Below, in pieces: positions 704 to 52,862 of a DNA stretch of 64,000 nucleotides. The stretch lies in contig JAEVLN010000006.1 of assembly GCA_018350325.1 (NCBI GenBank), positions 2,556,693-2,620,692 on the forward strand, written 5' to 3'. The notes below the pieces were generated by a model. That model saw only the letters and a list, made by a program, of their open reading frames with translations, did not search any database and was not told the origin of the DNA. Position 1 is the first letter of the stretch. Every line of letters starts with the position of its first letter. Made by a program: the position numbers and the translations under genes. The DNA comes from Globodera rostochiensis (Eukaryota; Nematoda; Chromadorea; Rhabditida; Heteroderidae).

Positions 704-2716
704 GGTTTTGCTCCAGTGCATTCTAGAATACAGGGCCAGCAACGAATCCTTCACAATTTTATACGGGCTGGAGATGCGCGTCATGAATTTGTAATCATTT
801 CGATTATCTGACAAAATGTTAAAGAATTAGTGAGGGCAATATGTTTATGTGGCATGGCACAAAACGCCCGTCACAGACTTGGCAAAAAAATGGACAAAAT
901 GTCGCGCCTCGTACCAAAATGGGACAGAAGACCAACTGTGGTTTATTCGTTTTTGTTAGAGTAGGCCGGGACCGTGGCTGGTACTGAAGTCTCCAATTTT
1001 GGGACTGAATTTCCCCCTTATAAAATCCCGGGTTTTTTCAAAATTTCAAATCTTTGTTTTTGACCATTAGTCCCGAGTTTTTGGACCGGGATTTGATTAA
1101 TTTTCCCACTCATAAAAATCCCGGTTTTTTAATATTCTCAATCCCGATCCCGGGTTTCCCCAAAAATCCCGGTCCCGGCCTACTCTAGTTTTTGTTTTGT
1201 TTCGCTTGGCTGAGTTGGCGTTTTGTCCCCAATTCAAAAAAATATTTTTGGACATTCTTTCCAAAAATTACCCAAATTTGTGGTCAGCCCAATGGAGGTG
1301 ATCACTGGGATGCCGTTGGAGTCTTTGTCGTGCCAATATGGCGACATTCGGGCCACTGGTGCCAATGCGTAGACAAATGCATAGCCTGGGGCAAATCAAA
1401 TTTTTAAAAAACCCAAACATTCTTTTTTATTGATTAATTTTCCAACCGATTATGACGTCAACACGATTTTCCACCAGCATGTTGATGGCCACATTGGGCC
1501 CGTGGGCATCCGACATTTGTGTGTCATTAAAATGGGTGATCAACGAATTGATGGGCGCCAATTGACGTCGATACACCTCCTCAATGCCCTAAAAAATGCC
1601 AAAATTTGTAGATAACAATTTAAATTTTTTAAAACCGGCATTTTTTTCTAACAAAATATTTCGTAATTTTAACAATCCAGTCCATAACTCTTTCAATTCT
1701 TAAAGTGACGAGCCGATCAATATCAGCGGTGCGGATTTTGCCTGAAAATTCGGCACATTTGCCGAGATTTTGGCTTTTCGGTTTTTTCAAAATTATTATT
1801 ACGGGACGAACAAGATTTGGTCTAATTTTGTAAATTTTGTACCACAATTCCTAAAAATTCAGTTAAATCCTCAAAAAAAAATTCTCAGCGCGGGCTTCTG
1901 AGTTTTTGTATATATTTTACAAATATTTTTGAGTTTTGTTGTCCACCGCATCACTGATCATTTTATTGTATTCCTGTTTTAATCACTAATAAAACAATGA
2001 TTTTAACTAGGGTTGCTCCCCGTCCCCAAACCCCGACTTTTTTTTAGTCGGGGTTTTCGTCTCCGACCCCGACTTTTTTGAATTTTTTGGGGTTTTTGCT
2101 GGGAATACCCCGAACCCCGACTTTTTTGGGCGGGGACAAAAACTCCGACCCCGACTTTTTCCGTCCCCGAAGGCTCGGGGAGCAACCCTAATTTTAACAA
2201 TGGCAACAAATCACCAACCTCGTCCACCACCGGACGTGCCTTCAGAATGGTGATGCCGAACGGGTTCTCCGTCTTACGTCCCTCCTCCGCCGGCAACGGG
2301 AACAGCATGTGGATGGGATGTGCCGTGTCCACCAGAAACTTTGGCTTCTTCTGTTGCTTCACAATGACCCGCCGTGCCGTTCGCTGCAGTGCCAATTTGT
2401 CTTCCATATCGTCCTCTTCAGACGAAGATGATGATGTTGTTGATGAGGAATAAGACGGCACCCTTTTTTGGTCAAGCCTAATCCGTCGTCGCTTCACCAC
2501 TTTGTTGATGCCAACGCGTTCTTCAAGCAGTACATCCAACAGCTCGGCAACATCTCGGTCCGGATTTTCCAATGGTTGAGTTCGAACATTTGCTGACGCC
2601 GTTGTTGTCGTTGAAGCCGCCGTGTTATTGTTGGCAAATGTAGCGGGCAGTGCGAGCGTTAGGAGCATGAGCAGTAGGGGGCAAAAAAGTGCCGAAATTT
2701 TGCACAGCATTTCCAT
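704..2716 (-). CDS. Receptor guanylyl cyclase, N-terminal half (partial, runs off left edge)
   Basis: The sequence shows minus-strand exons 2716-2219, 1588-1447, 1385-1272 and 807-704, all with GT..AG borders and compatible phases. The chosen Met at 2716 begins a signal peptide (MEMLCKISALFCPLLLMLLT...), followed by a Ser/Thr-rich, basic and acidic linker of about 100 residues. The ligand-binding (ANF-receptor type) fold starts near HPIHMLFPLPAEEG. Later exons carry FNDTQMSDAHGPNVAI, ALAPVARMSPYW, GIPVITSIGL and TRISSPYKIV, which match family landmarks. Members sit in the membrane, mostly of sensory neurons, and make cGMP in response to ligand. The remaining ectodomain, transmembrane, kinase-homology and cyclase exons would lie left of the window. 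Two hAT elements occupy introns. The exact family member cannot be named. The start could lie further upstream because the frame stays open to about 3301. Confidence 0.85.
957..1187. mobile_element. hAT-type MITE, TAGAGTAGGCCGGG family
   Basis: Ends TAGAGTAGGCCGGG and CCCGGCCTACTCTA form an inverted repeat. The exact 8-bp target duplication gtttttgt lies at 949-956 and 1188-1195. The interior iterates 'atcccggttttt'-like words. It sits in an intron of the receptor guanylyl cyclase gene. The same termini bound the much larger element at 51072-52854. Confidence 0.95.
2008..2190. mobile_element. hAT-type MITE, TAGGGTTGCTCCCCG family
   Basis: Terminal inverted repeat TAGGGTTGCTCCCCG / CGGGGAGCAACCCTA with exact 8-bp target duplication attttaac (2000-2007 and 2191-2198). 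The interior iterates CCCCGAC. It lies in intron 1 of the receptor guanylyl cyclase gene. A related, one-ended copy lies next to exon 1 of the kinase-homology fragment at about 25849-25940. Confidence 0.95.
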
Positions 2717-3301
2717 TTTGCCAGGGGCAATTTGCCGCCGTCGCTTGAGCCTGACACGCCCCGGGGGATGTTGCGGATAACTCTGACTCTGTCGGCATCC
2801 GCAATGATGATGACTTCCGGCTCGTGCCGCCACTGTTCTTCCACCGACCATCCTCCTCACTCTGCCATCATCCCCATCCGCCACTTGATAATCGCTTCCG
2901 GCATCATCCGACGACGACGACGATGGCATCCTCCGTTCCTCCTCCTCCTTCTCCTCTTCCTGCTGCTTCCCATTTGTTTCCAACAATTTCCATGGCAAGC
3001 AATTGCAACCGCAACAACATGAGGGACCTTCCACAAGGTGAGCGTGTCCAACCGGTTGTGCCAGCTTCAACGGCAAAGGTTGGCACGCTTTTTGTCTCAA
3101 GAAGATGTGCGTTGTGATTGGGTGGAAGAAAGACGGGGAGGCGGATTTTGTGATCGAGAATATATTTAGTGTTTGGGTTGGCACCAACAATTTAGGGAAA
3201 AATGTGAAATTAACACGCGCAAAATTGTCAGGTACTGCTCCCCAACCCCGTGGTGGTCCGGCCGGTCCCATACAAAATGCCAATGCACCTAACGCAACCA
3301 A
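2717..3301 (-). other. Open reading stretch upstream of the chosen Met
   Basis: The minus frame stays open upstream of the signal-peptide Met at 2716. The translation is low-complexity (EEEKEEEERR, SSSSSDD, RRRR) and does not resemble the family. It is most likely 5' untranslated or upstream sequence. An upstream start cannot be excluded. Confidence 0.4.
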
Positions 3302-11399: not shown

Positions 11400-14300
11400 C
11401 TCCGTTGTTGACGCCGACCAGCTCGACAAGGTCCTGGCGTGCCCAATGTGTGCCGCGCGACGATGGCACAATTGAGGCGGACATTTCCAAGCCCCAGCGT
11501 TTGGTCACTGTCCGTGCGTAAAGGCCCTGAAAATGTTTTTCTTTTTTAAATGAAATTTTAATTTTTGTTAAAACTTAAATGTTTTTTATTCAAAATTTGT
11601 GTGCAGTGTATTTTTCAGCTATTCGGCGATTTAAGGAATCTATGATTTCTGCATGTTTTCGGTACATTGGTATCAGGGATTTACCGGATCCGCAAAAAGT
11701 GCCCGGAATCCGGCATGCCGGATCCAAAAAGGTCCGAAACCCGGAATCCGGCAAATTTTCAAATTTTTCTGACATTTTTTCGCCCTCCTAAAAACCAAAA
11801 TTTTGATCTAATATTTTAAAATGAGAAAATCTTCGAAGCGAATTTAGCGCCCCCCCCCAATTGGGCAAGATTATGTGGTTTTTGGACCAATTTTCTTTCA
11901 TAACAAATTCCATCAAAAATTTTCTCGGCGGGGGATCCTTTTTGCCAAAAAGTCCGGAATCCGGCATCCATAATTCCGGCTCTCAAAAAAATGTTCGAAA
12001 TTCGGCATCGGGCCCAAAAATATCCGGAAAGCCTAAATCCAGCATCCGGTTACATCCTTGATATACATATGTTACGGGAAATTGAATTTCTCGCTCAAAG
12101 CAATAAATGTTGGAATTTCCAAATTTCCCCGGGAAGTTCCAGAATTTACCGATTTCCAAAATCTCCCCTAACATATATATCAATCGACATTTTATCGAAA
12201 AACACCGATCAGTGGCCGACGATCAAACAACAACAACAAATTCTGATCTGGAATCGTTTTGATCACATATTTTCACTTACGTTCATCAACAGTTTGCAAA
12301 AGCCGGCCTCGTGCAACTCCGTCTCCCAAAACTGCTTCTCGTAAAACATTCGGGAACGCATCCAACCAAATTGACGAAACAACCGTTCCAACAACTCGCT
12401 GATGTGATCCTGAAAGTGCCAAATGTAAACAATTGAAAGTGGCGCCTCAATTTTTGCTGCCCTTTATTAGTGGCCTTTTTTTGGGGCCAATTTTTAGTCG
12501 GTGCCGCGACAAAAAAAAAAAAGAATTTTAATCATTTTGCTAAGAAATTAGGTCCAAAAATTATTGTTTTACCATAATTTAAAAATCGAAAACTAAACAA
12601 AAAATTGCTAAATTCGGAAGCGAATAAATTAAAAATTTTCAAAAAAAATATCGAGACTCAATCTCGACTCGAGAAAAGTCGCGGGTTTTTTGGGTCTCGG
12701 GGTGAAGTCGCGAGTTTCGCTCAAATTTAGGTGCCTAAATAAGTGTAACATTTGAATTTTTTAGTGCCAATTTGGCGCGCTGAGCCTTAACGAGTCTTTA
12801 AATTAAGTTAGATCGCTAAGCTTTTTAAATTTTAGCTTCTAAAAACATAGAGCGCTTTCGGCTATTAGCTAGCATATTTTGATCGTTGATCAGTCCGTTC
12901 CCGAAAAGCAAATGGCACAAAAAGTCTCAACATTTACTGCTTTTACCTGAAGCGGTCCAACCCGGGTCAACAGCACAGTGCTTTTTTGTTCGATGAAAAA
13001 TTCGCTGAAATTTTGTAAAATTTTATAAACAAGCCCTAGCTAGGCCAATCTTAGCACACACCTGAAGCCTGCATTTGTGAAAATTGGCACCCGATAGAAG
13101 CTGAGAATGCGTGTCACGGTGGCCAACACGTAGTCGCAAGCTGGGCCAAACGCCACGTCCAACTGTAATAAGCAATAAGGTATAGGTAGGTAGTAGTGAT
13201 GCACGAGAGTCTCGGTCTCGAGTCTCGACTCGAGAAAAGTCTCGGGTTTTTTGGGTCTCGGTATCGAGTCTCGGGTACTTGGTCTCAAAAAACGAGACTT
13301 TTTTACACCCCTAAAGATGGCATTGGTCTCGGTATCGAGTCTCGGTAAATTTTGGGTCTCGTGCATCACTAGTAGGTAGGTGACCCTTCGGAAAGGTAAA
13401 AAGATTTTTTGAATTATTTAATGCAACGAAATTGGCAAAATATTTAATCAAAAAAGTGTCTGGAGTCGTTTGGCCTAGCACAACAACATTGAAACACCAT
13501 AACTAGAGACACCGGTCGAGACGAGATCTCGAGACAAAATCTCGACGAGATTCTCTAGAAATCTCTTTCTCGACATCTCGTCTCGAATAAAAGTGAATTT
13601 TCGAGAACCGAGATTTTTTCGAGAATCTCGTCTCGAGTCTCGCTCGAAGCTCAAGTCCGGTCTCTAACCATAACCCTTTGATCAACGCTACTAAGCCCCA
13701 CAAAGCAAACGTTGAGTGATTGGACAAATTCAAAAATATGGCCAGAAAATTTTTGAAAAACGCCAAATTTGGCACTTTTCGCAAAGAGTTTACGTAGAAA
13801 TCGTTTATTGTGTAAAGATTGAGCGTGTTCAAAAAGTGCCAAAGTCGTTAGCTGCTGTTAGGGCTCCAATTTCTAACCAAAAAACTTTTTTTTGCAAATT
13901 TTAAACCAAAAAAATTCAAAAGTTTTATAACCCCAGTGCCATTGGTCCATTGGACGGCCTCCAACGCTGCCCAAGCGGCACGGCCCTGATCATGGCAGTG
14001 GAGAATGGGTGCCATGTGAATTTGGAGCCATTCCGGCGCGGCCGTCCAATGGGCCAAGTAACGCCGGTGAGCATCCCGAATGGCCACGTCGATTATCTGT
14101 GCCAAATTATTTATCTATTTGTATTTATTTTAAAACATTTTGACAACTTTTGAATTGTTTCAAAATAAAAATTCATCAAACAGTACCGGCATCACTGAAG
14201 CGATGGTGGCCAAGTGCCGTTCCGATATTTCTGAATAAAAGTGAATAGATACTTGAAATTTTTCCGATTCTCCTAAACTATTTCACATTTTCGAATCCCG

Positions 14301-16039: not shown

Positions 16040-16071
<32 letters not shown>

Positions 16072-19100: not shown

Positions 19101-19581
19101 CAATTTTTTCGGTTTTTATTTCACCGATTTCTTTGCTCTATTCGGCATCACCAAAGGGGGGAACAACGAATAGGGGGGTAAAATGGAGTTGGGAAAGGCT
19201 ACCACCGCCGGCCTGCCTCTGATGATGTTGTTTTTTGCAGTTGAAAGAAAATTTCCCCCCTGGGGGGAAGTCGCCACGGGACAAATAATCATTTGTCTTA
19301 TGTGTATGTGTGTGCCCAGCGCCCCCAACGGCGCTCTGCTGCTCTCCCTCTCCGCTCGCTTTACCCCCGGAGGGCGAATTCCTGAGTCTCTCTAAGGGCC
19401 ACTAGAGAAATGATGGGGGGGGGGGGGGGGATGGGGATAATTGCTTGCCAGCGATGATGAGAAGCAGCAACAAAACATTCCAACCTCCCCCCCAGCTTTT
19501 TTTATTATGTAATGTCCAGATCAGTCAGCAGCAGGGGTACTTTTCGGTTTGATGCCTCCCACGCCGCGGATCAGTTTTTGA
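16180..19581. other. Non-coding stretch with long C and G runs
   Basis: No exon could be supported. The stretch contains a 24-nt C run at 17595-17618 directly followed by gcgggg, and G/C runs near 16817, 16890, 16930, 18350 and 19416. Local translations over these runs are artefacts. Confidence 0.5.
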
Positions 19582-19964
19582 CAGGGTACCGATATCTGCG
19601 GATTTTTCCCCATTCTGTGGTTTTTGAAAAGGCCAATGAGGATTTTTTTTGAAATGCGGATTTGCGGATTTTTGTGCTCTTTCGAGTTCCATGTGGACTT
19701 TTTGTGGTTTTTTGGGAAAAATGACTTTTAGCCTCATTTTGTGGTGGACAATAAGGCAAAATTTACAATTTTTAATGCAAAAAAGCATCACATTCTTTCC
19801 ACTTTTGGTTGCAAATCGCTTAAGGTCAAAATTTAAAAATTTTTCCCGATGCTCTTCTGTGGGTTTTTAATGAAGTAATGCAAAATTTGCGGATTTTAGG
19901 TATCAAATAAGGATTTTTTTAATGCTCCGATGCGGATTTTAAAAATGTTGAGATCGGAACCCTG
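19582..19964. mobile_element. hAT-type MITE, CAGGGTACCGATATC family
   Basis: Imperfect inverted ends cagggtaccgatatc and gagatcggaaccctg. Exact 8-bp target duplication gtttttga (19574-19581, 19965-19972). The interior iterates 'tgcggattttt' / 'aaaatccgca' words. Confidence 0.93.
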
Positions 19965-20858
19965 GTTTTTGATCAAGGGGAAAATAAATTTTGATCAGAA
20001 AATTCAAAAATGCATGAGCTTTTTGAATTGGAGACAGTGCTGTTGAAGAACTCGGCTTAATCATTTTAAATATTTGATCATTGCAAATTTTGACGAAAGA
20101 CCATGCGCAAATGAATATTTGATCGAATTATTTGAAATAATCGAATTTAACCAAAATGAAATTTAACAAAAGAGTTCTAAAGCAATATTTTGTTAAAACG
20201 ACAATTCAAGTCAAACAATCTTGGTACCCAGGTATCTCAAAGTGCCCTATTTGGTGAACCATCAAACAATTTTGGTACCATTTGGATTACCGGCAATTTT
20301 GGAACACAAACGGTAAAAACTGGTAACAGTAATTACCGGGATTTACCGTTACGGGGAAAGATCATTTGCCTACAAAAATACGAAAAAATAGCCATCGACC
20401 CAACCAAAAATTCGCAAAATATAAATTGAATTCAGAATAACGGATCGCTTCATTGGTAAATCTTTTTCCGAAACATCAGCTTTTCATAAAATTTTTTGAA
20501 TTTTATTGCGTTTTGAATGATTTTTAAAGGCTAAAATTAATTTTTGAAAATTGTTAATTTTCGAAAATTGTTCGAATTCCGGGTCGGGGATTTGAAATTA
20601 GTCGAAATAAATATCAGGTTTAGAATCTACGGCCTCGAAGACCCCTAGGAACTCCTTTTTATCCACTTAGAAAATTATTTTTATTATTTTCACAGCTTAA
20701 GTATTACCAAATGATGTCCTAGTACGACACGTTGGGATGAAAAGGATTGTCCGTCCCCGGTATGGGATCCCCCTCCCCCGGCTCCTACCCTAGTTTTTAG
20801 CTAAAATTTTTGGGGAAAAAAAGAAATTAGTAAGCAGCATACTTAAAGAGCTTCTGAA

Positions 20859-20953
20859 TAAGGCTGTCGATTTCAAACCGAATCAAACCGAAACCCGACA
20901 TTTTTTCGATTCAGTCAGTTTGAAACCGAAAATAATTTAAAACCGCAGCCTTA
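20859..20953. mobile_element. 95-bp hAT-type MITE, TAAGGCTG ends
   Basis: Very short element with ends TAAGGCTGTCG and CGCAGCCTTA and exact 8-bp target duplication cttctgaa (20851-20858, 20954-20961). The arms repeat 'aaaccgaa'. A one-ended relative (accgacagcctta) ends near 33450, just past caspase copy B. Confidence 0.9.
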
Positions 20954-21851
20954 CTTCTGAATGCTATTGTTTTTGTTTGATTTGCTCCTAATGACTAAGA
21001 TATGATTGATAGCGCCAAAACAATTGGTGCCAAATTTTTAACATTTTTCATTTATGAAGAAAATAAATATAAATGCTACCTTCTACATCCGGCGTCTGTC
21101 TGTACTCTTCTTTAGCAAAGACGTATATTTTTACCAAAATTTCTTACAGACGCCTATTGGCCCCTTCGGATCGAAAAAACATCGTTTAAAAAACAACGTT
21201 TAAAAAACAATAGAGCAAATTTTCAGAGGAAAGTCGGCCAAAGAGCAACAAAAAAAAAGAGACTAAACTCGGCGGTAGGGGCGGAGAAAAGTTTGACAAA
21301 ATAAGTTTTTAGTTAAAGCTACCAGACATAGTACGGTGTAAGACGCGGTTTTTTTCGGCATAACCAGTTCGGTCAACCTAAACATTTATTTGTCCTGGCA
21401 TTTTTCGGTATCATCGATTGGATATACCGCGATCTAATTTAAGGATTTTGAAAATGCCGGCCCCGGTAAACAGGGCTTCAGCGAATTTTTCACCAAACGC
21501 GCTAGGATTTTCGTTATTTCGATTTCATATTTGCGGACGGAACCCTTGGCCACCAAAAAGCTTATAAATGCAATATTTTCCCCCATTGAAAGGGCTTTTT
21601 GGCAAATGCTATTATGCCAGGATAGCACAGGACATTTTGCTTTAGATTTGGACTAAACGCACAAAACTTGACATAATTTGGTTAGACTGCAAATCAAAAA
21701 AATTTTAATCTAAAAAGAAAATATTTTTGACTTTTATGTTTGAAAAACTCAGACGATTTCGGTTACACAAATTTCGGCAAGTAATACAATGATGCTTTTA
21801 TGAAAAACATACATACATGATAAAATGTGGATTCCGGGGACTTTATACTTT

Positions 21852-29830: not shown

Positions 29831-29923
29831 TTCACTTTTTTATAAATTCTGTCCTTATTTTTCGAATTTTGTGAAGATTTTCATAATTTTTGTATCCAAA
29901 TTCGAAATGAGAAAAGTTCAAAG

Positions 29924-30491
29924 TAGGGTTGAGAGGGACCGGGACTTTTGGGAAAAACTGGGACCGGGACTTCCCGGGACCAGAAAAACCGGGACCGGGA
30001 CCAAGATTTTCAACCGGGACCGGGACTAACCGGGACTTTTCAATGGAATTTTTTTTTGTAATTTTTTGAGATTCAGCTTTACTTTTAGGGGGAGGTGGGG
30101 GTCTGCCGATAGGCGCCGCCGAGAAAAATTTTTGAAATTTTGACTCAATTTGTTAAGGAAATTTCATCAAAATTTTAGCAAAATTAGGAATTTTGCTTCG
30201 AAATTCAGAGAAAAAAAACTGGTTTAAGTAAGAGTGGAGGATGTCCAAAAATTTTTACAAAAAGTGACAATCTTTGTTAAGGAAATTGAAGCAAAAAATT
30301 CAAAGACGTGATGATTGATGATGCCATCATTAGGGGTGTATATTTAGTCCCGGTTGGTCCCGGTCCCGGCGGGACCAAAAAACCGGGACCGGGACTTTCA
30401 GATTTTAAAAAGTCCCGTCCCGACCGGGACCGGGACCTGAAAAACCCGGGAAATCCCGTCCCGGTACCGGTACCGGTCCCGCTCAACCCTA
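29924..30491. mobile_element. hAT-type element, TAGGGTTGAG ends, CCGGGAC word
   Basis: Ends TAGGGTTGAG / CTCAACCCTA and exact target duplication gttcaaag (29916-29923, 30492-30499). Both arms are dense in ggaccgggac / gtcccggtcccg words. The middle holds an AT-rich core and a copy of the GC hairpin (ctgccgataggcgccgcc, near 30103). Confidence 0.95.
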
Positions 30492-30649
30492 GTTCAAAGC
30501 GAATTTTATTCGCTCCAATTTCATCAATCAAATAAAATTCAAACTGCGGTCGGCGAATGGCATGGCTTCAATTACAAAATTTTTGATGCTCAATTAGCCG
30601 GTGGGGGGATTTGGACCGGTAGCCGTCCGGGTTCGTGCTTTGTAAGTAC

Positions 30650-31289: not shown

Positions 31290-31466
31290 GTAAGTACACA
31301 GCAATACAAACAAACGTGTATGTTTCTCTACTCACTATATGTGCATATTTCTCTTTTTCGTATTTGTTTCAACAACACATTTTTCAACCATCCCTACTCC
31401 TTGCAAACCAATAGGTATTTATTAATTTCATAATAAACATACGTTTGTTGTACTGCAAGTACACAA

Positions 31467-31613
31467 CAGGGATTTAACCGAATTACGGTCTTTTTGGCAG
31501 AACGGTAAGATCCTTAATATTTAAAACAGGATTTTCGGTCACATTTTTGGGTCCGGCCTGGACATTTTTTAGGACCCGTACACTGACTTTTTTTTGGCTC
31601 CGTTACATCCCTG
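31467..31613. mobile_element. 147-bp hAT-type MITE, CAGGGATTTAAC ends
   Basis: Ends cagggatttaac and gttacatccctg with exact target duplication gtacacaa (31459-31466, 31614-31621). It lies upstream of caspase copy B. A one-ended copy of the same start lies at 54544 upstream of copy C. Confidence 0.93.
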
Positions 31614-31919
31614 GTACACAACAATAGTCATGGAGGTTTGGTTTTGTGAAATTAGACGAAAATAGCTCACCTCAGCTTTCTAATGAGTAAATTTGAAATT
31701 TGAAATGCCCTTTAACGATTCGTTCTTCTTTGTGGTGTCACAATCTTTGAAATTTGAAAGCCCTTTTAACAATTAGTTCTGTTTTGTGGTCCCCCAATCT
31801 GAACGGCATCCAACTCGTTCCGCGCCAACTCGTTCATCCTCAACTAGTTAACCTACCCCGCTTGTTTATGCGTTCCTTTTTGTGATGTTCCAATCACTGC
31901 AATTAATAGGTCTTTTTTT

Positions 31920-32898: not shown

Positions 32899-32899
32899 C

Positions 32900-35571: not shown

Positions 35572-35574
35572 GAG

Positions 35575-35690: not shown

Positions 35691-35938
35691 TTTTAATATA
35701 AAATTGCTCGAAAAATCATTAAATAACATATTTATCACCACTTTTCACCATTTTGAGCAAATTTGGCAGAGAAAGGAAGTAATTATGGGCTTGGGGGCAA
35801 GTCAAATCGGAATTGAATTTTATGGAAACAAGTGCATTCAAAAGATGCGTTCCCATAAATCGATCAGTTTCGAACCCTTGGCCCGAATTCGAAGGTTTTT
35901 CGATTTCAAAATTTTTTCGGAATCTTTTGGCCTTAAAG

Positions 35939-36449
35939 CAGGGTTGCCAACTGTACTTATTTATCAGAAATGTACTGATATTAGGAGGCATAATCTGACA
36001 AATTAAAAATGTACTGATTTGTCAGAAATGTACTGATTTCAACTCGGCGTACTGATTTTGTACTGATTTTCAGGATAATTCCTATTTTTGGACCAATTTT
36101 CTTAACAAATTGAGTCGAAAATCCAAAAATTTTCTCGGCGGCGCCTATCGGCACCGCCGATCCCTCACCCCTACTAAAGCAGAATTTGGAAAAAAATTGC
36201 ATTTTTGAAAAAAAAAACGAAAATCGGCAAAACTCAAAAATCCATGTGAACAGCTGCAATTTCCAACCCCCGAATTGTTGGAAAATTGTTGGTGACGAGA
36301 AATATGGTTAAAAACGCACATTTCATGCGAAAAAAATAAAGATTTACTATATTTTGAAACATTTTTTATAATGTACTGATTTTTGACCCCAAAATCTGAT
36401 ATTTTGATTCCAATGTACTGATTTTGGAAAATTTTTGTTGGCAACCCTG
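35939..36449. mobile_element. hAT-type element, CAGGGTTGCCAAC family (copy 1)
   Basis: Ends CAGGGTTGCCAAC / GTTGGCAACCCTG. The arms iterate 'atgtactgattt', and a GC hairpin lies at 36137-36158. The left flank (about 70 bp ending ccttaaag) equals that of the copy at 49576-50072, but the right flank does not repeat ccttaaag. This copy therefore arrived by duplication or capture with its left neighbour, not by simple transposition. Confidence 0.9.
36137..36158. other. Recurrent GC hairpin GGCGGCGCC-TATC-GGCACCGCC
   Basis: Two 9-bp arms (one G.T-type mismatch) around TATC, inside AT-rich sequence. About ten copies occur in the window: near 30103, 36137, 37152, 38178 (decayed), 49773, 51585, 51698, 59014, 62334 and 62469. 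Those inside complete elements belong to families with unrelated termini. Flanking sequence (caattttcttaacaaatt, aaaaattttctc) is partly conserved too. Confidence 0.9.
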
Positions 36450-36626
36450 AGTAATAGTGTTTGGTTTGAAAATGAACTTTTTGATACATACTATATGTCT
36501 AACAACATTCTCTCTCTCTCTGCCCTCACTCAGCACAAATTATCGATTGTGTCTTAACCTTTACCGATCCATCGCCCATAAAAGTTACATTCTTCTGCTT
36601 TCCTTTTCCCGCATTTGCCTTTCCAA

Positions 36627-37995
36627 CAGGGATGTGCTCTGGTCGACTTTTTAAAAATCAGAAACCAGAAACCAGAATTCTGGTTGCATAAAACAAAAAT
36701 CAGAAACCAGAAAACAGAATTCTGGTCCTTATTTTAAAAATCAGAAATCAGAAAACAGAATTCTGGTGCCCAAAATGACCAGAAATTCTGGTAAATCAGA
36801 AAACCAGAACAGAAATTTTTTAATCATTCCCGCATTTTTCTTAAGCAATTTTTCCTCCAAAAAGTTCGATTTTAGGGGTGTGTTTGTTGGGTTTTTTATT
36901 GCATTTTTCTTATCAAATTTTCCAAAAAAGTTCAATTTTCAGTAAATTTTTTAGAATTTTTAACATTTTGGTAGAAAAATTTCAAAAATGTTGTCGATTT
37001 TTAAATTTTTCAAAAATGCAAATTTTTTGCGAATTCTGCTTGCGGGTGGGTCAAAATTTTGAATTTTTGACTTTATTTATTAACAGATTTTCAACCAAAA
37101 CTTAAAAAAATCGACACTTTTTTTAATATTTTTTAGAAATAGGAGGGGGTCGGCGGTGCCGATAGGCGCCGCCGGGAAAATTTTTTTGATTTTTGATGAC
37201 AAGTTAAGAAAATTGGCCCAAGAATGAATAATTTTGCAAAAATGGCTATTTGTAAAAGGTGTTGTAAGTAAAAATTTTAACTTAGAATTTCTGGTTTTTT
37301 TCTGGTTTTTTCTCTAAAAAACCAGAAATCAGAATTCTGGTTGCAAAAAAAAAACCAGAAATCAGAATGGTTCTTATGCTGTTTGTCCCCCACAAATTTT
37401 TTTTTTGCTAAAACACTGAAAAAATGTTTTTAGGGGTAATCAAGGGTGTAGAATCCGATTCTGACATTTATTCCGCTCAATGCCGAACCCCAGACCCAAA
37501 TTCGAACAATTTTCGAAAAATTCAATTTTTTCAAAATTCGCATTTATTTCACAAAATCGATTCAAATGCACGAAAATCATTATTAAATGAGTGACAACGG
37601 AAGTATTCATTGAGCACGCTCACATGGGTACAAAACACTCACTTGAGACCAAAAAATTATGAAACACAACATTATAATTGCCGAACTGTTTAGCTATAAA
37701 AACTCTGGCAGTTTTCGTGCATTTGGATCGATTTTGTGAAATAAATGCGAATTTTGAAAAAATTGAATTTTTCGAAAATTGTTCGAATTTGGGTCTGGGG
37801 TTCGGCATTGAGCGGAATAAATGTCAGAATCGGATTCTACACCCTTGATTACCCCTAAAAACATTTTTTCAGTGTTTTAGCAAAAAAAAAATTTGTGGGG
37901 GACAAACAGCATAAGAACCATCAGAATTCTGGTGCCCAAAATCACCAGAAATTCTGGTAAATCAGAAAATCAGAACGGAACAGAGCACATCCCTG
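36627..37995. mobile_element. hAT-type element, CAGGGATGTGCTCTG family, 1.37 kb
   Basis: Perfect 15-bp ends CAGGGATGTGCTCTG / CAGAGCACATCCCTG. Exact target duplication ctttccaa (36619-36626, 37996-38003). The arms iterate 'aatcagaaaccagaattctggt'-like words. The middle holds the GC hairpin (37152-37173) and a large nested palindrome (37372-37921). No transposase is visible. It lies directly upstream of the F-box-like gene start at 38092. Confidence 0.96.
37372..37921. repeat. Large palindrome of the TTCGAA dispersed family
   Basis: Two almost identical inverted arms of about 215 bp (ggttcttatgctgtttgtcc ... and its complement) around a spacer of about 120 bp. Each arm has the motif cluster gttcgaatttgggtctgggg, ggcattgagcgg and gattctacacccttgattac. 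Related single or paired arms occur near 20580, 34195, 45060, 47690-48050, 52900, 54860 and 57345-57640. Confidence 0.9.
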
Positions 37996-38091
37996 CTTTC
38001 CAACACACACCATTTTTTATTCGAATGAAAACTTTTTTTATAGTTTTTAGATCATTGGAATCATAAAAATCATTTCGATTTGCAACAAAAA

Positions 38092-41000: not shown

Positions 41001-44000
41001 CGCAGGATGATGGCGGTTTTGGCTGATTGTACCCTTGAGGTTGCCTGAACGGGGGCCTGTTGTGTTGTTGGGTTGTTGGTGGTACTGCGCGTGCCAGTTG
41101 CGGAATGGGTGGATTGGGGTAGTTTGTGTGTGGACTTGTTAGGAGACGTTTGTGAATGTTATCGACTGCCGATTGGATAAAGGTGTGGTCCTGAGGGTGA
41201 GCGAGTTGATTATTGTGCCGGAATTCCGCTCCGGCGGTGATTGGAGGGGGTTGCGGTTGATGGTGCCCATATTCGCCCATGACTTCTTGAATTTGAGACT
41301 CCCTTCGGACGGCATCGTTCAGGACTTCTCGGAGTTTTGTTGTGGTCCAGTGAGTTGGATTTTCGCCTTTCTTCGTCAGTATTGTGCGCAGGAAACTAGG
41401 CGGTAGCTTCTTCTCAAGCATGAGGAAGGTTGGCGGGCCTTCAATGTCTTCTCCCGCATTGTTGAGTTCTCGTGTCAATCGTTCGAGTTGTAGAAGGAAT
41501 TCCTTTGTGTCGCGCAGGTTTTTGCAGGATTTGAGGTTGGCCAGTTCAAAATGTAGAGCCCTGATGTGCTCTTCCGGGGCTCCATACGTGTCTTTGAGAA
41601 GCTGCAGGGCCACGTCGTAATTCTGGTCTTCGAGCCTGAAGCCGGCGACCAGATCCCTTGCTTCACCGCTGAGCAAGTTGCGCAAAATGTTAAACTTTTC
41701 AGCTTTGCCGATCGGATGTCCTGCAACTGCCGATTTGTAGGACTCGTAGAATTCGGGCCACCGTATTTTGGTGCCCGAAAACTTTTCCAACTGCAGTGGT
41801 TGGAATTGGTAAAACGGCGTTGCGTATTGTTGCGTCTGGACTGCTTGGTGAGCTGCCACGTTTGGTTGCATGGCTTGCTGCAGGGCTCGTTGATGGTTTG
41901 CTTGAGCTTCGCGCTCTTCTTTGTCCGCTCTGTTGCGATAAAGCCGGGCTTGGACTGTAAGCGTGCTGATGAGATCGCGCAAGTTGCGGAGTTTGACGGA
42001 AGCTTCATCGGCCTTGTCGTTTATTTTCTCCTTCGTGTTGAACGCGCTGAATTTGTCTTCCGCCGCGTCCCGCTCTGCAGCTGTCAGTTTGCGGAGAAGG
42101 TCGGCCCATGCGCTGGACGCCTCGCGTATGTCGTCCAAGAATATCTCCAACGTCCTGGCCTCCTTTTGCACTTTTTCGAGCTGTGTTTCGAAGTTGAGCG
42201 CATTCTCGAGGTGCTCTGCGTTGTTGTCGGCCAGGAGGTTCAGTTCCGCAGCTGTGCGTGTGCGGGCCAGAATTCTGAGTGCTGCTCCCAATTTTTGCTG
42301 GATTGGAGCCGACATTGTTGCTGAGTTGAGTGAAAAACGGCTTGGTTGTTGACTGTCGAGAAGTTCAAGCAGTACAACGACTGCTCTGCTTTGATTTGAA
42401 CACGCAACTATCCCTTATGAATTGCTGCCGGTGTTCGACCGTTGATGAATGAGTAGTCTGCTGTCACGGAGAGGAAGCAGTACGCCGCTGAATGGATTGA
42501 CTGTGGTCACGGAGACCGAGCAGTTCACTGATGTTGATGATGGCCGGTGCCCCCTTAGGAAGTTTGGTCGCGAAGGACCGAAACTCCCTTACTCCCTCAG
42601 ATTTTGAGTTGAACAGCTTCGGCACAAAGACCAAAAACTGTTCACTCTTTCCCACTTTTGCCCGACCCCTTTTTGTTCGATATCAAGTTCGGTCACGAAG
42701 GACTCGAACTTGAACCGTTCTTGTTGAGTTTTCCCGAATGGCAAAACTACCACAGTTGATGGAGTCCTGCGGAGATCAGAAGGGTTGTCGTGTTCAAGTC
42801 ACGTCGGGGTCACCACTTGAAGTGACGGCGGATGATGGGCGCCGTCAAAACAAAAAACTCGCAGCTCACGGTAGAGTGCGAGGGGGTGGGGCGGGCGAGA
42901 GTTGGAGGTGGGAGTTGGAGAGGCAGCGGAAGGAGGAAAAATCACGCACAAGAATAAAATCAAATTTATTTGCGATCTCAAACTTGGGTAATTAAACCCA
43001 CATTTACATGAAATGTGGAAAAGAAAATGATCACCGGGGATTGAGGTGATCACACTGAGTAATGGGGGCAATGGGTAATTGATGAACCGGGCAATTGGAT
43101 AAAATGATAAAACCGAATGATTTGATGACCGGGGGGTCCCAGAAATGGATGAAACCGGGATGATTGGGTTGGACTAGAGGTGTCAGATGAGAAAGACTAG
43201 AACATGATTGAAATGAATAATTGATTTGGGTGAGGTGGCCAAAAAAGGGTAATGGATTTTATGGGGGTGACGGACTGTAATTGGTGAATATGTAAAGGAT
43301 CTGGTGAAATGTGGGCAAAGGAATGTTGAGAGGGAAATTGTCGATGGGCGGCAAAATGCCTCGAACGTGGTCCAAATGAATGACTGATTGTGGTGAAGAA
43401 TGGGGGCTTATAAAGAGGACAGAATTGTTGGCCAGACGGTGGGGTGAGAAGAAATTGATTGACAATTAGTTAGTTACTGGGGTGATGTTGGCATTCACGT
43501 GCGTCAATGTGGAGGGGACAATGTTTGGTGGGGAGGATTGGGCCAAACATATTGAATGTGGGCATTCGTAAAGGTGAAAAATGGGCTGATAATTGGCGGC
43601 GGGGGATTAGGACGTTCGTACGTCAATGTGCAAAGAGAGACCTGTTAGTCGTTGGCCGCGAAGATTAGTTAGATAAGTTAAGAATTTGGTTGGTACGGCC
43701 AACGACCAACATTTGGTTAATTCCAAATTCAAACTATTTGAATTTTCGAAATGGTGTTTCGACACTTGTTTTTTTTTGTCAAAAAAAATTTCGGGGGTGG
43801 GCCCTGGCCCCCTCGGCCCATATTGAGTTTATGTCATCTAGTCACCTTTTTTAAACAATTTCATTTTTTTCAGTTTCATTTGCGACGACGTTTTGTTCGA
43901 AGTGTTCGCATTTTGTGGACATTTTGTGCTCGGACTGAAAGTTGCGCTGATCAGCGATCGATTTGACCGTTTGGTGGACGCGCATTTCAAATTGAATGGA

Positions 44001-48050: not shown

Positions 48051-48130
48051 TATTCAAAATTATAAACATCCGAAAATAAAATAAAAAAGTTCAGCGGGAC
48101 CGCCAATTCTGCACCATTGCCCAATAAAGG

Positions 48131-49377: not shown

Positions 49378-50181
49378 CCCTACTTTTTGCCAACTGTACA
49401 TTTTGCCAACGTTACATTTCGCCAACCCAGCAAAATATTACGTTTTGCCAACCCAGCAAAATTGTATATTTTGCCAACTCATCAAAAACTCAAATTTCGA
49501 TCAGTTTCGAACCCCTGGCCCGAATTCGAAGGTTTTTCGATTTCAAAATTTTTTCGGAATCTTTTGGCCTTAAAGCAGGGTTGCCAACTGTACTTATTTA
49601 TCAGAAATGTACTGATATTAGGAGGCAGAATCTGACAAATTAAAAATGTACTGATTTGTCAGAAATGTACTGATTTCAGCTCGGCGTACTGATTTTGTAC
49701 TGATTTTCAGGATAATTCCTATTTTTGGACCAATTTTCTTAACAAATTGAGTCGAAATTCAAAAATTTTCTCGGCGGCGCCTATCGGCACCGCCGACCCC
49801 CACTCCTACTAAAGCAGAATTTAGAAAAAATTGCATTTTTGAAAAAAAATCGGCAAAACTCAAAAATCCATGTGAAAAGCTGCAATTTTCAACCCCCGAA
49901 TTGTTGAAAAATTGTTGGTGACGAGAAATATGATTAAACGCACATTTCATGCGAAAAAATAAAGATTTACTATATTTTGAGACATTTTTTAAAATGTACT
50001 GATTTTTGACCCCAAAATCTGATATTTTGATTCCAATGTACTGATTTTGGAAAATTTTTGTTGGCAACCCTGCCTTAAAGACATTTCATCATACAAAAAC
50101 GTAAAGTTGGCAAAAACAACAGCTGGCAAAACGTAACATTTTTGCTGGGTTGGCAAAATGTACAGTTGGCGAAATGTAGGG
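49378..50181. mobile_element. Long-inverted-repeat element with TTTTGCCAAC word
   Basis: Ends ccctacttttt-gccaactgtacattttgcc and its complement share about 32 bp. The arms continue with repeats of 'ttttgccaacccagcaaaa'. A hAT element and its old flank (49500-50085) occupy the middle. It abuts the preceding element. No target duplication was recognised. Confidence 0.7.
49576..50072. mobile_element. hAT-type element, CAGGGTTGCCAAC family (copy 2)
   Basis: Ends CAGGGTTGCCAAC / GTTGGCAACCCTG with exact target duplication ccttaaag (49568-49575, 50073-50080). Word 'atgtactgattt'; GC hairpin at 49773-49794. Nearly identical to 35939-36449. This copy has both target repeats and is the better reference. 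Confidence 0.96.
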
Positions 50182-50254
50182 TTAACCCCAATAAATAATG
50201 TTATCTTTGAAATCTGGGCTCACAAAAACAAAAAAAAAATCAGCAGCAACTCAC

Positions 50255-50959
50255 ATGCCAAACAGAAGACCGCCAATGTGCGCGGCGTGGTCAAATGACA
50301 CCAAACGATGGAGGGGCAAAATGCGTAGCAAACAGACAGTTTCGAATGCCAGCAGTCCGTAGAGAGCATCTTGAAACAAAAATTGGTTAAAAATTTGTCC
50401 CAAATTCAATTCGTTTCCGAGTTTTTGGTTAAAAATTTGTCCCAAATTCAATTCGTTCCCGAGTTTTTGGTTAAAAATTTGTCCCAAATTCAATTCGTTC
50501 CCGAGTTTTTGGTTAAAAATTTGTCCCAAAGGCACAATTTGTTCCCGAGTTTTTGGTTAAAAATTTGTCCCAAAGCACAATTCGTTCCCGAGTTTTTGGT
50601 TAAAAATTTGTCCCAAAGACACAATTCGTTCCCGAGTTTTTGGTTAAAAATTTGGCCCAAAGACACAATTCGTTCCCGAGTTTTTGGTTAAAAATTTGTC
50701 CCAAAGGCACAATTCGTTCCCAAGTTTTATTAAACCGTATTATATTGTTGTTAAAAAACAAACAATTAGCAGAAAATGAAAACATCGGCAAAAAGATGAT
50801 GTGCACCGGCAAGTCCGGCAACTTGGAACAAACGTAACCGATGACGGCACAAATTGCCCCGCTGGCGCCCAACGACGTAATTGCTGAGCCCACGTAAGCG
50901 CTATTGCACAGCGAAAGCAGCCCGCTGAACACGCCACCAGACAAATACATCGCCATGAA
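50255..50959 (-). CDS. PARL/ROM-5-type mitochondrial rhomboid protease (two core exons)
   Basis: Minus exons 50959-50764 and 50369-50255 join in phase. The first has SLGASGAICAVIGYVCSKLP and IIFLPMFSFSAN; the second has FDHAAHIGGLLFGM. These match the two catalytic blocks of the mitochondrial rhomboid PARL (nucleophile Ser in GASGA, catalytic His in HAAHIGG), an intramembrane serine protease of the inner mitochondrial membrane. Several hydrophobic helices are evident. The exons for the N-terminal mitochondrial part and the last helix were not found. They should lie right of 50959 and left of 50255, where transposons now fill the sequence. The visible catalytic residues are intact. The intron between the two exons is a 42-bp tandem repeat. 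Confidence 0.87.
50383..50730. repeat. 42-bp tandem repeat in the rhomboid intron
   Basis: Eight units of 'ggttaaaaatttgtcccaaa' plus 'ttcaattcgttcccgagttttt' and variants (40-42 bp). Units three to eight diverge in the middle ('ggcac', 'gacac'). It fills nearly the whole intron between the two catalytic exons. Confidence 0.92.
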
Positions 50960-51297
50960 CTGTCAAATTTTTAAAAAAAAAAGTTTTAAAAATTTCTTCA
51001 TCAACAATTTTATTTTTGTCGATTATATCTGCTGACCACGATGCCGCCAAAATTTTAAAATGTTCCGAAAGTAGAGTAGGCCGGGATCGGGATCCCGGTC
51101 GGGATCGGGCGGGATTATCCCGGTTTTTGGAATCCCGATCCCGATCCCGGTCCCGGTTTTTGAAAAGTCGTAATCCCGATCCCGACCCCGGTTTTTAAAA
51201 TGTCGTAATCCCGATCCCGATCCCGACTGGGTCGGGATTTTCGGGATAAAAATGCACCCCTAAGGAAGGGATTTTTGAGCGGAAATATTCAGTTTGG

Positions 51298-51525
51298 TCG
51301 TGGTGTAGTGGTGAGTGGTGGATGCAGTTTAAGTGTGGGAGGGGTGTGGTTCAGTTCCCCGACTCTGTAAATTATTTTTTCTAACTTTTCTCTGAACATT
51401 TACGGTGGTTTAAACAATTCTAAAAATTATTGTAACTTTTTTCAAATATTTTATGACAATTTACATGTTATTTATTTGATTTTGGTTGGACGAAATCAAA
51501 AAACCATTGGGTGGGGACTCTTTGT
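51298..51525 (+). repeat. tRNA-derived SINE
   Basis: Box A-like tcgtggtgtagtggtgagtg at the start and box B-like ggttcagttcccc at 51348-51360, spaced as in tRNA genes. The AT-rich body and tail (ttggttggacgaaatcaaaa...accat) are shared with 61963-62175 and 34390-34560. It could be transcribed by RNA polymerase III. Confidence 0.75.
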
Positions 51526-51872
51526 TTTGCAACATTCCTAATTTTTGGTAACAAATCTTGTTCAATGTTCAAGAAAATTTCCCCGGCGGCGCCTATCGGC
51601 GCCGCCGGACCTTTACCACCCCTAAAATGGTCCGTATTTTTTAAATTTTGGTTGCAAATCTCTTAACAAAATTCATTAAAATTTCAAAAAATTTTCCGGC
51701 GGCGCCAATCGGCACCGCCGACCCCCACCCCCCCCCCCCAAAAGTTAATCAGAATCTCAAAAAAATTTATGATGGATGAGGCAATAGAAGTTGAAGAAAA
51801 TGAGAAAAATATTTTTAATAATAAAAAAAAAATTTGTCTTACCACTGACCATAACAAAAAAAAGGGAAAGGG

Positions 51873-52659
51873 ACGTTTTGTTCCCGCCGTTTTGTTCCCG
51901 CCGTTTTGTTCCCGACCAGTTTGTTCCCGGGTACGTTTTGTTCCCGACCAGTTTGTTCCCGCCGTTTTGTTCCCAAACATTTATTACATAAAAAGCGACC
52001 CGCCGTTTTGTTCCCAAACATTTATTACATAAAAAGTGATGTCAAACGTATCTGAAACTGCCACAAATCGTCGCATCGGAGGCTCAAGCGTGCATTTTTC
52101 TTGCACACACCCAACCATTTGGCACTTTATCAATGTGCTGAGAACTGAACAAAAGTCAAGGGATGCCGATTTTGCCCGTTTTGTGATGGGAGAAGAGCCG
52201 CCAAAGAAAGCTGAAAAATTTCGCAGGGCGGATGCGCAGATACTCCGACTGGTCGAACGAGATGACCCTCTGAACATTGTTGAAATGCTCCGGGGAATTT
52301 CTCGTTGTTATGTTATGGATCCCGAAGCCGAAGCATAATTTTTTTTGTTTTCATCTACTCCGGAAATGTTTCTCAATATCCCAAAAAACCTTCCTTCATT
52401 TTTTCCGGTTATGATTTTCTCAATTTATGAATCTTATTTTTTTTATGCTAATCAACAACTGACTTAACTTACGGGCATGTTTTTCGAGTGTTTAGATAAA
52501 TGGTTACCTATTTGTGGCAGTTTCAGATTCGTTTGACATCATTATGTAATAAATGTTTGGGAACAAAACGTACCCGGGAACAAAACGGCCGGGAACAAAC
52601 TGGTCGGGAACAAAACGGCGGGAACAAAATGGCGGGAACAAAACGGCGGGAACAAAACG
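51873..52659. mobile_element. Mutator-like element with TTTTGTTCCCG word ends
   Basis: Both ends consist of repeated ttttgttcccg(cc) words (inverted at right). Inverted arms of about 70 bp follow: ccaaacatttattacataaa ... gtcaaacg.atctgaaactgc. A transposase remnant lies inside. No target duplication was recognised. It is nested in the hAT-bounded element 51072-52854. Confidence 0.78.
52036..52338 (+). pseudogene. MULE transposase C-terminal remnant
   Basis: A 100-residue frame with CTHPTIWHFINVLRTEQK followed by EKFRRADAQILRL. This matches the end of animal Mutator-like transposases (..HP.IW.FI..L..EQ...; from memory of the family). The catalytic core is missing. Its position inside long inverted repeats supports a deletion derivative of a MULE. 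The first codons overlap the inverted arm. Confidence 0.65.
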
Positions 52660-52862
52660 ATACCCACTCCAAAAAAAAAATTTCGCTGTTGTCAATCCCG
52701 ATTAATCCCGATCCCGATCCCGGTTTTTGAAAAGTCGAAATCCCGATCCCGATCCCGATTCAACATGCTGATCCCGATCCCGATCCCGGCTTTCACGATC
52801 CCGGTGAATCCCGATCCCGGTTTTTACCAGAAATCCCGATCCCGGCCTACTCTATCCGAAAG

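What the first reader, a model, noticed from the sequence alone, without database searches (positions are those of the whole stretch)
949..52862. A swarm of hAT-type elements whose arms are each built from one family-specific repeated word
Seen: 14 elements with inverted ends and exact 8-bp target duplications (957, 2008, 13194, 13504, 15859, 19582, 20859, 29924, 30650, 31467, 36627, 48272, 49576 and 51072). Of the duplications 11/14 have T at position 2 and 12/14 have A at position 7, the nTnnnnAn pattern known for hAT transposases. Ends fall into TAGAG/TAGGG/TAGTG and CAGGG classes. Most arms are made of one short word repeated many times, different in each family: CCGGGAC, ATCCCG, CCCCGAC, GTCTCGG, AACCAAA, AATAGGCACAAA, ATGTACTGATTT, AATCAGAAACCAG and others. 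Inference: the word may be the family's transposase-binding site multiplied in the arms, so words and ends would evolve together.
Basis: partly seen in the sequence, partly recalled or inferred. Interest (0 to 1): 0.8.

Follow-up and report, generated by a model that had tools for sequence, protein, structure and literature searches.

The report
Jumping genes with word-filled ends
This stretch is littered with small cut-and-paste jumping genes (hAT type) whose two ends are packed with copies of one short DNA word, a different word in each family, most likely the docking sites of each family's own transposase; in one family most copies of the word have changed at the same letter.

Summary
In detail: all 14 elements have inverted ends and exact 8-bp duplications; NAG-ended 8-bp structures number 13 (12 of them listed) against a mean of 0.55 in 20 shuffles. 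Arms of 11 of 14 are clearly richer in repeated words than shuffles. In the same 92.6-Mb genome I found relatives with transposase domains (BED finger, hAT dimer domain or both): strong matches for six elements (957, 13194, 13504, 29924, 36627, 51072), weaker for two (15859, 20859), none found for six. In 17 transposase-bearing elements the word picked from the 5' arm alone recurs 7-18 times in the 3' arm and is absent from the interior in 16. Words start after a word-free 9-bp terminus (14 of 19 lineages, one mismatch allowed). Word similarity follows BED similarity, but not once close relatives are removed. Two copies from different subfamilies, about 90% identical, differ by the same base at 20 of 26 aligned word sites. 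The word is very probably the BED-binding subterminal repeat known from Ac and Hermes; binding was not measured. Ends and words do not simply evolve together: identical termini (TAGAGCCCGG) carry different words. New member of a known kind, valuable as a natural dictionary of fingers and sites.

The parts
949..1195 (.). A957: hAT MITE, TSD GTTTTTGT, ends TAGAGTAGGCCGGGACC, word CCGGGA(C/T)
   Evidence: right end 92%/50 bp to transposase-bearing L041/L051; other copies L003, L004, L006 with perfect TSD
2000..2198 (.). B2008: MITE, TSD ATTTTAAC, ends TAGGGTTGCTCCCCG, word CCCCGAC
   Evidence: 120 exact termini genome-wide, reversed-pattern control 0; no transposase partner found
13186..13379 (.). 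C13194: MITE, TSD GTAGGTAG, ends TAGTGATGCACGAGA, word CGAGAC
   Evidence: 93.8%/129 bp to the 5' arm of L046; right terminus 24/24 to its 3' end
13496..13674 (.). D13504: MITE, TSD ACCATAAC, ends TAGAGACACCGG/TAGAGACCGG, word TCGAGA
   Evidence: 81-94% to both arms of hAT-dimer-bearing L016/L017
15851..16016 (.). E15859: MITE, TSD CTAAATAC, ends TAGAGACCGG/TAGAGTCCGG, word CCAAAA (weak in this copy)
   Evidence: 86.5%/52 bp to L027/L028 and the TAGAGACCGG end and word in common
19574..19972 (.). F19582: MITE, TSD GTTTTTGA, ends CAGGGTACCGAT, word ATCCGCA
   Evidence: no transposase partner found
20851..20961 (.). G20859: 95-bp MITE, TSD CTTCTGAA, ends TAAGGCTG, word AACCGAA
   Evidence: terminus TAAGGCTGTC and word shared with BED-bearing L067 (by eye, no blast hit at 1e-8)
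29916..30499 (.). H29924: MITE, TSD GTTCAAAG, ends TAGGGTTGAG(A/C)GGGACC, word CGGGAC
   Evidence: 157 exact termini genome-wide; right arm 91.3%/172 bp to the 5' arm of BED-bearing L065
30642..31297 (.). I30650: element with TSD GTAAGTAC, ends TATAGACGAGATT/TAGAGACGAGATT, word weak
   Evidence: z 2.9; no partner found
31459..31621 (.). J31467: MITE, TSD GTACACAA, ends CAGGGATTTAAC/CAGGGATGTAAC, word weak
   Evidence: z 2.2; no partner found
36619..38003 (.). K36627: element, TSD CTTTCCAA, ends CAGGGATGTGCTCTG, word CCAGAA, with internal inverted repeat 37361-37927
   Evidence: 84 exact termini genome-wide; 94.9%/197 bp and 97.4%/76 bp to the two arms of the 2.26-kb BED+hATC element L040
48264..48863 (.). 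M48272: MITE, TSD TTAATTAG, ends CAGGGCTGGCACTTTTAGGC, word TAGGCA(C)
   Evidence: 44 exact termini, 36 of them in 18 pairs, 17 pairs 557-598 bp long; 3 of 3 fetched copies have perfect TSD and 12-15 TAGGCA; no partner found
49568..50080 (.). N49576: MITE, TSD CCTTAAAG, ends CAGGGTTGCCAAC, word ATGTACTGAT
   Evidence: 4 exact termini genome-wide; no partner found
51064..52862 (.). O51072: 1.8-kb element, TSD TCCGAAAG, ends TAGAGTAGGCCGGGATC, word TCGGGAT
   Evidence: 81-84% over about 200 bp at both ends to L041/L051; word base shifted against them
35931..36457 (.). Second copy of the N49576 family, not in the finding; left duplication CCTTAAAG only

Best explanation
The elements are non-autonomous hAT transposons (MITEs and larger derivatives) made largely of the two ends of hAT elements whose transposase genes, or relics of them, sit elsewhere in the same genome. 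Each end is a word-free terminus of about 9-10 bp, which the catalytic part of the transposase would cut, followed by a 100-300-bp array of one family-specific word in both orientations, which I infer to be the site read by the transposase's N-terminal BED zinc finger. Many words would let several BED fingers of a multimeric transposase hold the end cooperatively and would give specificity that one short site cannot. Because only ends are needed in cis, derivatives that keep little but the arms spread. Shown here: element structure, relatives with transposase domains and the same arms for six families, confinement of words to arms, the usual register of the first word, correlation of words with BED among close relatives, and a shared word-base change between subfamilies. 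Inferred: binding, cooperativity, and that selection for binding keeps the words.
For: Structure beyond chance. PF05699 scores at 150 places, 117 over its cut-off by my count of the table, none in the 14 control genomes. A profile of 11 hATC domains matches four PDB sequences at E <= 0.01, all at about 1e-18: two named Hermes transposase, two named only transposase (recalled as Hermes). BED fingers found by Pfam and by a local profile. Arms of window elements match arms of elements with transposase domains. In 17 transposase-bearing elements, the commonest 6-mer of bp 31-220 of the 5' arm (chosen without looking elsewhere) recurs 7-18 times in the 3' 350 bp and 0 times in the interior in 16, 3 times in L042. 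In 19 arms of 220 bp one 6-mer occurs 6-26 times exactly (about 0.1 expected for a 6-mer named in advance), and 73 of 226 neighbouring pairs are inverted. With one mismatch allowed a word starts at bp 10-13 in 14 of 19 lineages (6.5 expected, P 4e-4) and never at bp 1-9 (11.9 expected); in Hermes the BED substrate is bp 11-27 (PMC10368747, passages). Word spectra correlate with BED distance: r 0.37-0.47, P <= 8e-4, 17 lineages. Precedent: Ac transposase binds AAACGG hexamers in its ends (PMC3260210, passages); Herves binds CGATTCAT repeats (PMC3143072, passages).
Against: No binding or transposition was measured. Six of 14 window families have no transposase partner among the sequences I held; for H and G only a BED, no hATC, was seen; three families have weak words. 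With four close relatives removed (13 lineages) the BED-word correlation vanishes (r 0.09, P 0.24). With exact 6-mers the register test is not significant (5 of 19 against 3.5). My BED profile matches ZBED1 (1.3e-5) and ZBED2 (3e-4) structures but scores a C2H2 protein best (HIC2, 6e-8), matches many C2H2 fingers and does not list Hermes at E <= 1; the Pfam BED search also rings, below its cut-off, in 3 of 14 control genomes. In Hermes, putative BED motifs beyond the first 50 bp of the left end were judged not needed, though some other feature of the ends was (PMC10368747, passages), so not every word need be a working site.
Confidence: 0.86

Rival explanations
1. The words are by-products of tandem duplication, replication slippage or conversion inside transposon ends, homogenised like a satellite, without a binding function.
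For: TRF finds tandem arrays in several arms; the B terminus also recurs head to tail at C38:218492-219213 and C1:735536-735803; neighbouring words are mostly direct (153 of 226); the shared word-base change between subfamilies could come from conversion.
Against: 73 of 226 neighbouring pairs are inverted; words keep to the ends in 17 elements; between L015 and L014 the word base changed inside a framework of spacers that still aligns; arms are kept in derivatives that lost the gene.
Confidence: 0.08
2. The words are sites for a host protein or a transcription or silencing signal and not for the transposase.
For: Nothing here measures who binds; 5' arms also hold the presumed transposase promoter.
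Against: Words differ by family and follow the family's BED among close relatives; both ends carry them, also in elements without a gene; terminus and first word are usually adjacent.
Confidence: 0.05
3. The elements belong to another superfamily and hAT genes in the genome are coincidence.
For: Six of 14 families lack a found hAT partner.
Against: Arms match elements with hAT-type domains at 81-97% for six families; nTnnnnAn duplications; hATC profile match to Hermes.
Confidence: 0.01

Closest known systems
Ac/Ds of maize (hAT)
   Same: 8-bp duplications, 11-bp TIRs, terminal 200 bp with multiple AAACGG hexamers bound cooperatively by the transposase, and many derivatives that keep only ends (PMC3260210, passages read).
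   Different: Here many hAT lineages lie in one genome, each with its own word; three hexamers suffice in Ac, while here 6-26 exact words lie in one 220-bp arm.
Hermes of the house fly (hAT) and its BED domain
   Same: N-terminal BED finger, subterminal repeats beginning right behind the terminus (BED substrate bp 11-27), a quasi-palindromic first pair; hATC profile match (PMC10368747, passages read).
   Different: Hermes repeats are 4-bp (AAGT/AAGC), 17 and 14 per end, and the first three of the left end are contacted; here words of about 6 bp cover on average 35% of the arm. The BED profile built here does not reach Hermes by sequence at E <= 1.
Herves (hAT) of Anopheles
   Same: Short repeated motif (CGATTCAT) at both ends, shown to be sufficient for transposase binding (PMC3143072, passages read).
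   Different: Several copies only; different motif.
Galileo (P superfamily, Foldback-like)
   Same: Long internally repetitive ends with multiple binding sites for the transposase's THAP domain (PMC3688188, abstract and outline read).
   Different: Different superfamily; THAP and not BED.

Membership tests
hAT transposon superfamily | 8-bp target-site duplication, nTnnnnAn | tested here: met
   14 of 14 window elements exact 8 bp; NAG-ended structures with 7- and 9-bp duplications number 2 and 1; T2 41/48, A7 38/48 in pooled duplications
hAT transposon superfamily | Short terminal inverted repeats of T/CAGNG type | tested here: met
   12 of 14 window elements have NAG at both ends; 20859 has TAAGG, the left end of 30650 TATAG
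hAT transposon superfamily | Transposase with hAT C-terminal dimerisation domain | tested here: met
   PF05699 inside TIR- and TSD-bounded elements that match A, C, D, K and O; for E in L027/L028 without both ends held; for H and G only BED seen; no partner found for B, F, I, J, M, N. Profile match to Hermes
hAT transposon superfamily | N-terminal BED zinc finger | tested here: met
   PF02892 at 76 places at E <= 1, with sub-threshold hits in 3 of 14 control genomes; fingers read in L018, L022, L037, L040-L050, L065 and others; profile reaches ZBED1 and ZBED2 but also C2H2 fingers, not Hermes. Not seen clearly in L016, L017 and not in L015, L023
hAT transposon superfamily | RNase H-like DDE catalytic core | not tested
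   Genes appear in pieces and many copies are internally deleted; the catalytic residues were not mapped
Ac/Hermes-type subterminal repeats | Repeated short motif near both ends | tested here: met
   17 of 17 transposase-bearing elements; 11 of 14 window elements at z > 4
Ac/Hermes-type subterminal repeats | Motif bound by the element's own BED finger | not testable with these tools
   Only indirect: BED-word correlation among close relatives, register
MITE | Short, non-coding, many copies of similar length | tested here: met
   M: 44 exact termini, 17 of 18 pairs 557-598 bp. H: 157 termini, pairs of varied length, about 127-950 bp, in the first 100 listed. K: 84 termini, B: 120. N: only 4, so not high-copy by this count. 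A, C-G, I, J, O not counted by terminus

The most novel reading that the evidence does not exclude
This genome is a natural dictionary of BED-finger specificities: each hAT lineage advertises its own finger's binding word by repeating it dozens of times, and finger and words change together in a concerted way, most copies of the word shifting at the same base inside a conserved framework (TTACCG to ATACCG; CCGGGA(C/T) towards TCGGGAT). If so, a recognition code could be read off, for instance K/R at the Hermes-66 position with W at 69 for GGG words (L041, L065, L037) against S66 for GAG words (L045, L046, L050), and the puzzle of how a protein can change specificity when some 30 sites must follow becomes testable.
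Probability: 0.35. Interest if true: 0.78.

Novelty: new member of a known kind. Interest (0 to 1): 0.56.

Why it matters
That hAT transposases bind repeated subterminal motifs is known from a few elements (Ac, Tol2, Tag1, Herves, Hermes). A single genome with 17 sampled BED-plus-word lineages (some close to each other), including subfamilies caught with most word copies altered at one base, gives matched protein-DNA pairs for a zinc-finger class, and a direct way to study how a DNA-binding protein and dozens of its sites change together. It also explains why some MITEs here look like satellite DNA: they are little more than arrays of presumed binding sites. I saw no account of this in the listings of eight library searches, which does not show that none exists.

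Tried and rejected
Tandem slippage as the whole cause of the words was set aside because many neighbouring words are inverted and because the L015/L014 change lies inside spacers that still align. In one search words were ranked by arm minus interior density, which favours words absent from the interior; one search repeats the count with words chosen from the 5' arm alone and gives the same picture (interior 0 in 16 of 17). L070 first looked like a transposase with a changed word array; alignment to L048 showed an insertion, so it was dropped. The word cluster in L077 belongs to a TAGTGTT element and that in L071 lies 1.1 kb from its BED; both were left out of the BED-word test. L066, L069, L075, L078-L080 and L083 have BED-like fingers but no convincing word array within 1.3 kb upstream; they were left out and may be host genes, relics or genes with long introns; they are misses for a rule 'every BED has words'. 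L074 is a weak copy of the L046 type; L068, L072, L082 and L084 are further copies of the L048 type; none was used. So 4 of the 19 BED regions (L067, L073, L076, L081) entered the test. An exact-6-mer register test was not significant; the 1-mismatch version was. The BED-word correlation is lost without close relatives, and word against hATC alone in 15 lineages gives P 0.35, 0.08 and 0.008 for 4-, 5- and 6-mers. In one search the L027 arm was anchored at a wrong terminus; it was replaced by its 3' arm. A protein search with the 186-aa BED-bearing reading frame of L040 found nothing at E <= 0.001. The host organism was not identified.

Of the 30 loci from the hAT-domain search, 15 show a TIR+TSD pair enclosing the domain within the 3.2 kb held (L009, L012, L014-L020, L022, L023, L025, L032, L033, L037); the other 15 do not, partly because the locus is short; for three of these (L010, L021, L029) a larger region showed it. 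Of the 12 larger regions 10 do; L043 and L047 do not.
Full report
Observation. All 14 elements of the finding are present with inverted ends and exact 8-bp duplications. In a neutral search (up to 2 kb) the window has 13 NAG-ended, 8-bp-duplicated structures, 12 of them from the list; 20 dinucleotide shuffles give 0 to 2 (mean 0.55), and 7-bp or 9-bp duplications give 2 and 1. Duplications show T2 in 11/14 and A7 in 12/14. Arms hold more repeated 7-mers than 100 shuffles by z > 4 in 11 of 14; 15859, 30650 and 31467 do not stand out.

Genome copies. Exact termini, with zero hits of the reversed control pattern each time: H 157, B 120, K 84, M 44, N 4. Of eight loci of family A, one of which (L001) is the window copy itself, four have perfect duplications, one differs by one base (L007), three lack one recognisable end. 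Of four H copies fetched, two have perfect duplications, one differs by one base, one has none; 3 of 3 M copies are perfect. The H copies hold 5 to 22 CGGGAC, the M copies 12 to 15 TAGGCA.

Transposases. PF05699 scores at 150 places, 117 over its cut-off by my count of the table, none in 14 control genomes; PF02892 (BED) at 76 places at E <= 1, with hits below the cut-off in 3 of 14 control genomes. I read 30 loci of about 3.2 kb around the hAT domain, 12 larger regions where BED and hATC lie close together, a region for family H and 19 BED regions. Elements of 2.26 to 2.98 kb holding both domains between perfect 8-bp duplications are L040, L041, L042, L044, L045, L046, L048, L050 and L051; L049 is a 1.75-kb relative of L048. 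The hATC profile of 11 sequences matches four PDB sequences at E <= 0.01, each at about 1e-18, two named Hermes transposase and two named only transposase. The BED profile matches ZBED1 (1.3e-5) and ZBED2 (3e-4) along its length but also many C2H2 fingers, one of them better, and not Hermes at E <= 1. Intactness of reading frames was not tested and activity is not claimed.

Match to window elements. K36627 to L040 (94.9% over 197 bp, 97.4% over 76 bp), C13194 to L046 (93.8% over 129 bp), D13504 to L016/L017 (81-94%), O51072 and A957 to L041/L051 (81-92%), H29924 to L065 (91.3% over 172 bp; BED seen there, no hATC). Weaker: E15859 to L027/L028 (86.5% over 52 bp, same terminus and word), G20859 to L067 (same terminus TAAGGCTGTC and word, by eye; BED only). 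No partner found for B, F, I, J, M, N among the sequences held.

Words are an arm property. In 17 transposase-bearing elements (L012, L015, L016, L022, L023, L025, L037, L040-L042, L044-L046, L048-L051; chosen for TIR and TSD, several from one family) the commonest 6-mer of bp 31-220 of the 5' arm occurs 6 to 17 times in the first 350 bp, 7 to 18 times in the last 350 bp, and 0 times in the interior in 16; L042 has 3 (an earlier count that ranked words by arm minus interior is). In 19 lineages, using 220 bp of one arm (the 3' arm for L027), a single 6-mer occurs 6 to 26 times exactly and covers on average 35% of the arm; 73 of 226 neighbouring pairs are inverted. The first 9 bp never start a word even with one mismatch (0 of 19; 11.9 expected from arm density), and with one mismatch a word starts at bp 10-13 in 14 of 19 (6.5 expected, P 4e-4); with exact words the register test fails (5 of 19 against 3.5). 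In Hermes the BED substrate is bp 11-27 of the left end, and base contacts come from residues 63-67 and 70 just before the zinc histidine H71 (PMC10368747, passages).

Words and fingers. Word spectra of 17 lineages correlate with BED distance (r 0.37 to 0.47 for 4- to 6-mers, P 8e-4 to 1e-4). In the 13 with both domains, BED given hATC keeps r 0.27 to 0.29 (P 0.02 to 0.04) while hATC given BED does not (P 0.14 to 0.53). Without four close relatives (13 lineages) the correlation is r 0.09, P 0.24. So words track transposases over short distances; a code is not shown. The residues before the zinc histidine read GSTKGLWK (L041), GSTRGMWK (L065) and HSTKGLWD (L037) in GGG-word lineages and GNTSGMDR, GNTSGMDK, GNTSGMVR (L046, L050, L045) in GAG-word lineages, a hint only, since relatedness within each trio is not excluded as the cause.

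Concerted change. In the TAGTGTT family, L015 and L014 align at 90.8% over 873 bp, a stretch that is mostly interior and runs into the 3' arm. I counted only word sites whose core TACCG is the same in both: of 26 such sites with letters on both sides in the two arms, 20 differ by the same change (TTACCG in L014, ATACCG in L015), one the other way, five are alike; four more sites face a gap. Independently of alignment, 17 copies with perfect duplications fall into two groups: 10 with 22-36% A-type words and 7 with 62-92%. Six of these seven come from 12 loci fetched by a terminus pattern that fixes one word (the other six of the 12 had no TSD-bounded pair and were not counted); the seventh, L015, came by its hAT domain. 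A second, weaker case: O51072 against L041, where 8 of 17 aligned sites shift from C to T before CGGGA, two shift the other way, one differs otherwise and six are alike; CGGGA is followed by T in 31 of 34 cases in O51072 but 14 of 36 in L041. Deeper in time, a block CACCCCTAA lies at bp 117-191 of the 5' arm in 6 of 19 lineages whose words differ (CCGGGA, CGGGAC, CGGGGA, CGAGAC twice, AAACCG): it looks as if the frame of the arm is kept while the word is replaced.

Ends against words. L016 and L044 share the ten-base terminus TAGAGCCCGG but have words TCGAGA and CGGGAA. Terminus distance follows hATC distance (r 0.36, P 0.0016) and BED distance (r 0.36, P 1e-4).

Known background. Ac transposase binds AAACGG hexamers in the terminal 200 bp and three copies are required (PMC3260210, passages); Herves binds CGATTCAT repeats and its authors note short repeats bound in Ac, Tol2 and Tag1 (PMC3143072, passages); most hAT elements are said to have sets of subterminal repeats (PMC10368747, passages); Galileo, of another superfamily, has multiple THAP sites in long repetitive ends (PMC3688188, abstract). 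The mechanism is therefore known in kind. What is added is the number of lineages, the saturation of the arms and the concerted word change. Verdict: real, hAT, well explained; moderately to highly interesting as a test bed.

Noticed in passing
window 30105, 36137, 37158, 49773, 51585, 59019, 62469: A module around GGCGGCGCCTATCGGC, in 5 of 7 cases preceded by (T/C)TTAACAAAT, sits inside four otherwise different element families (H, K, N, O) and twice outside them; 2,711 exact copies genome-wide, reversed control 0; among the first 100 places listed, pairs 117-124 bp apart recur. Nature unknown.
   Followed up: partly
L041, L065, L037, L046, L050, L048; window 13306, 30331, 36873, 51255, 51617: Block CACCCCTAA just inside the word array of 5' arms, shared by lineages with different words; its complement TTAGGGGTG resembles a hAT terminus.
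   Followed up: partly
window 35931-36457 and 49568-50080: Two copies of the N family share about 68 bp of left flank but not the right flank: probably a segmental duplication rather than two insertions.
   Followed up: partly
window 39307-42414 (-): 1035-aa open frame with DUF1759 and DUF1758, recalled as typical of BEL/Pao retrotransposons; frames at 37970-38632 and 42799-43173 on either side share a long identical translated stretch, as long terminal repeats would.
   Followed up: no
G000:C38:218492-219213 and C1:735536-735803: The terminus of family B recurs head to tail every 94-119 bp and 59-68 bp: an element end turned into a satellite-like array.
   Followed up: no
G000:C11:100852-112057: Five hAT-domain hits with the same score spaced about 2.72-2.76 kb apart: a tandem array carrying a transposase fragment.
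   Followed up: no
window 15286-15784: G+C-rich 54-bp tandem repeat, 9.2 copies, 98% matches, ending just before element 15859; open in several frames on both strands.
   Followed up: no
L066 (C12:2980572-2982182), L083 (C4:192490-194118): BED fingers without word arrays within 1.3 kb upstream; the C4 finger lies in a 251-aa open frame: possible host genes derived from hAT.
   Followed up: no
L027 and L028 (C3:1839945 and C3:1844931): Two hAT copies of the E type lie back to back (divergent strands) about 5 kb apart with equal scores and identical domain residues.
   Followed up: no
   Followed up: no
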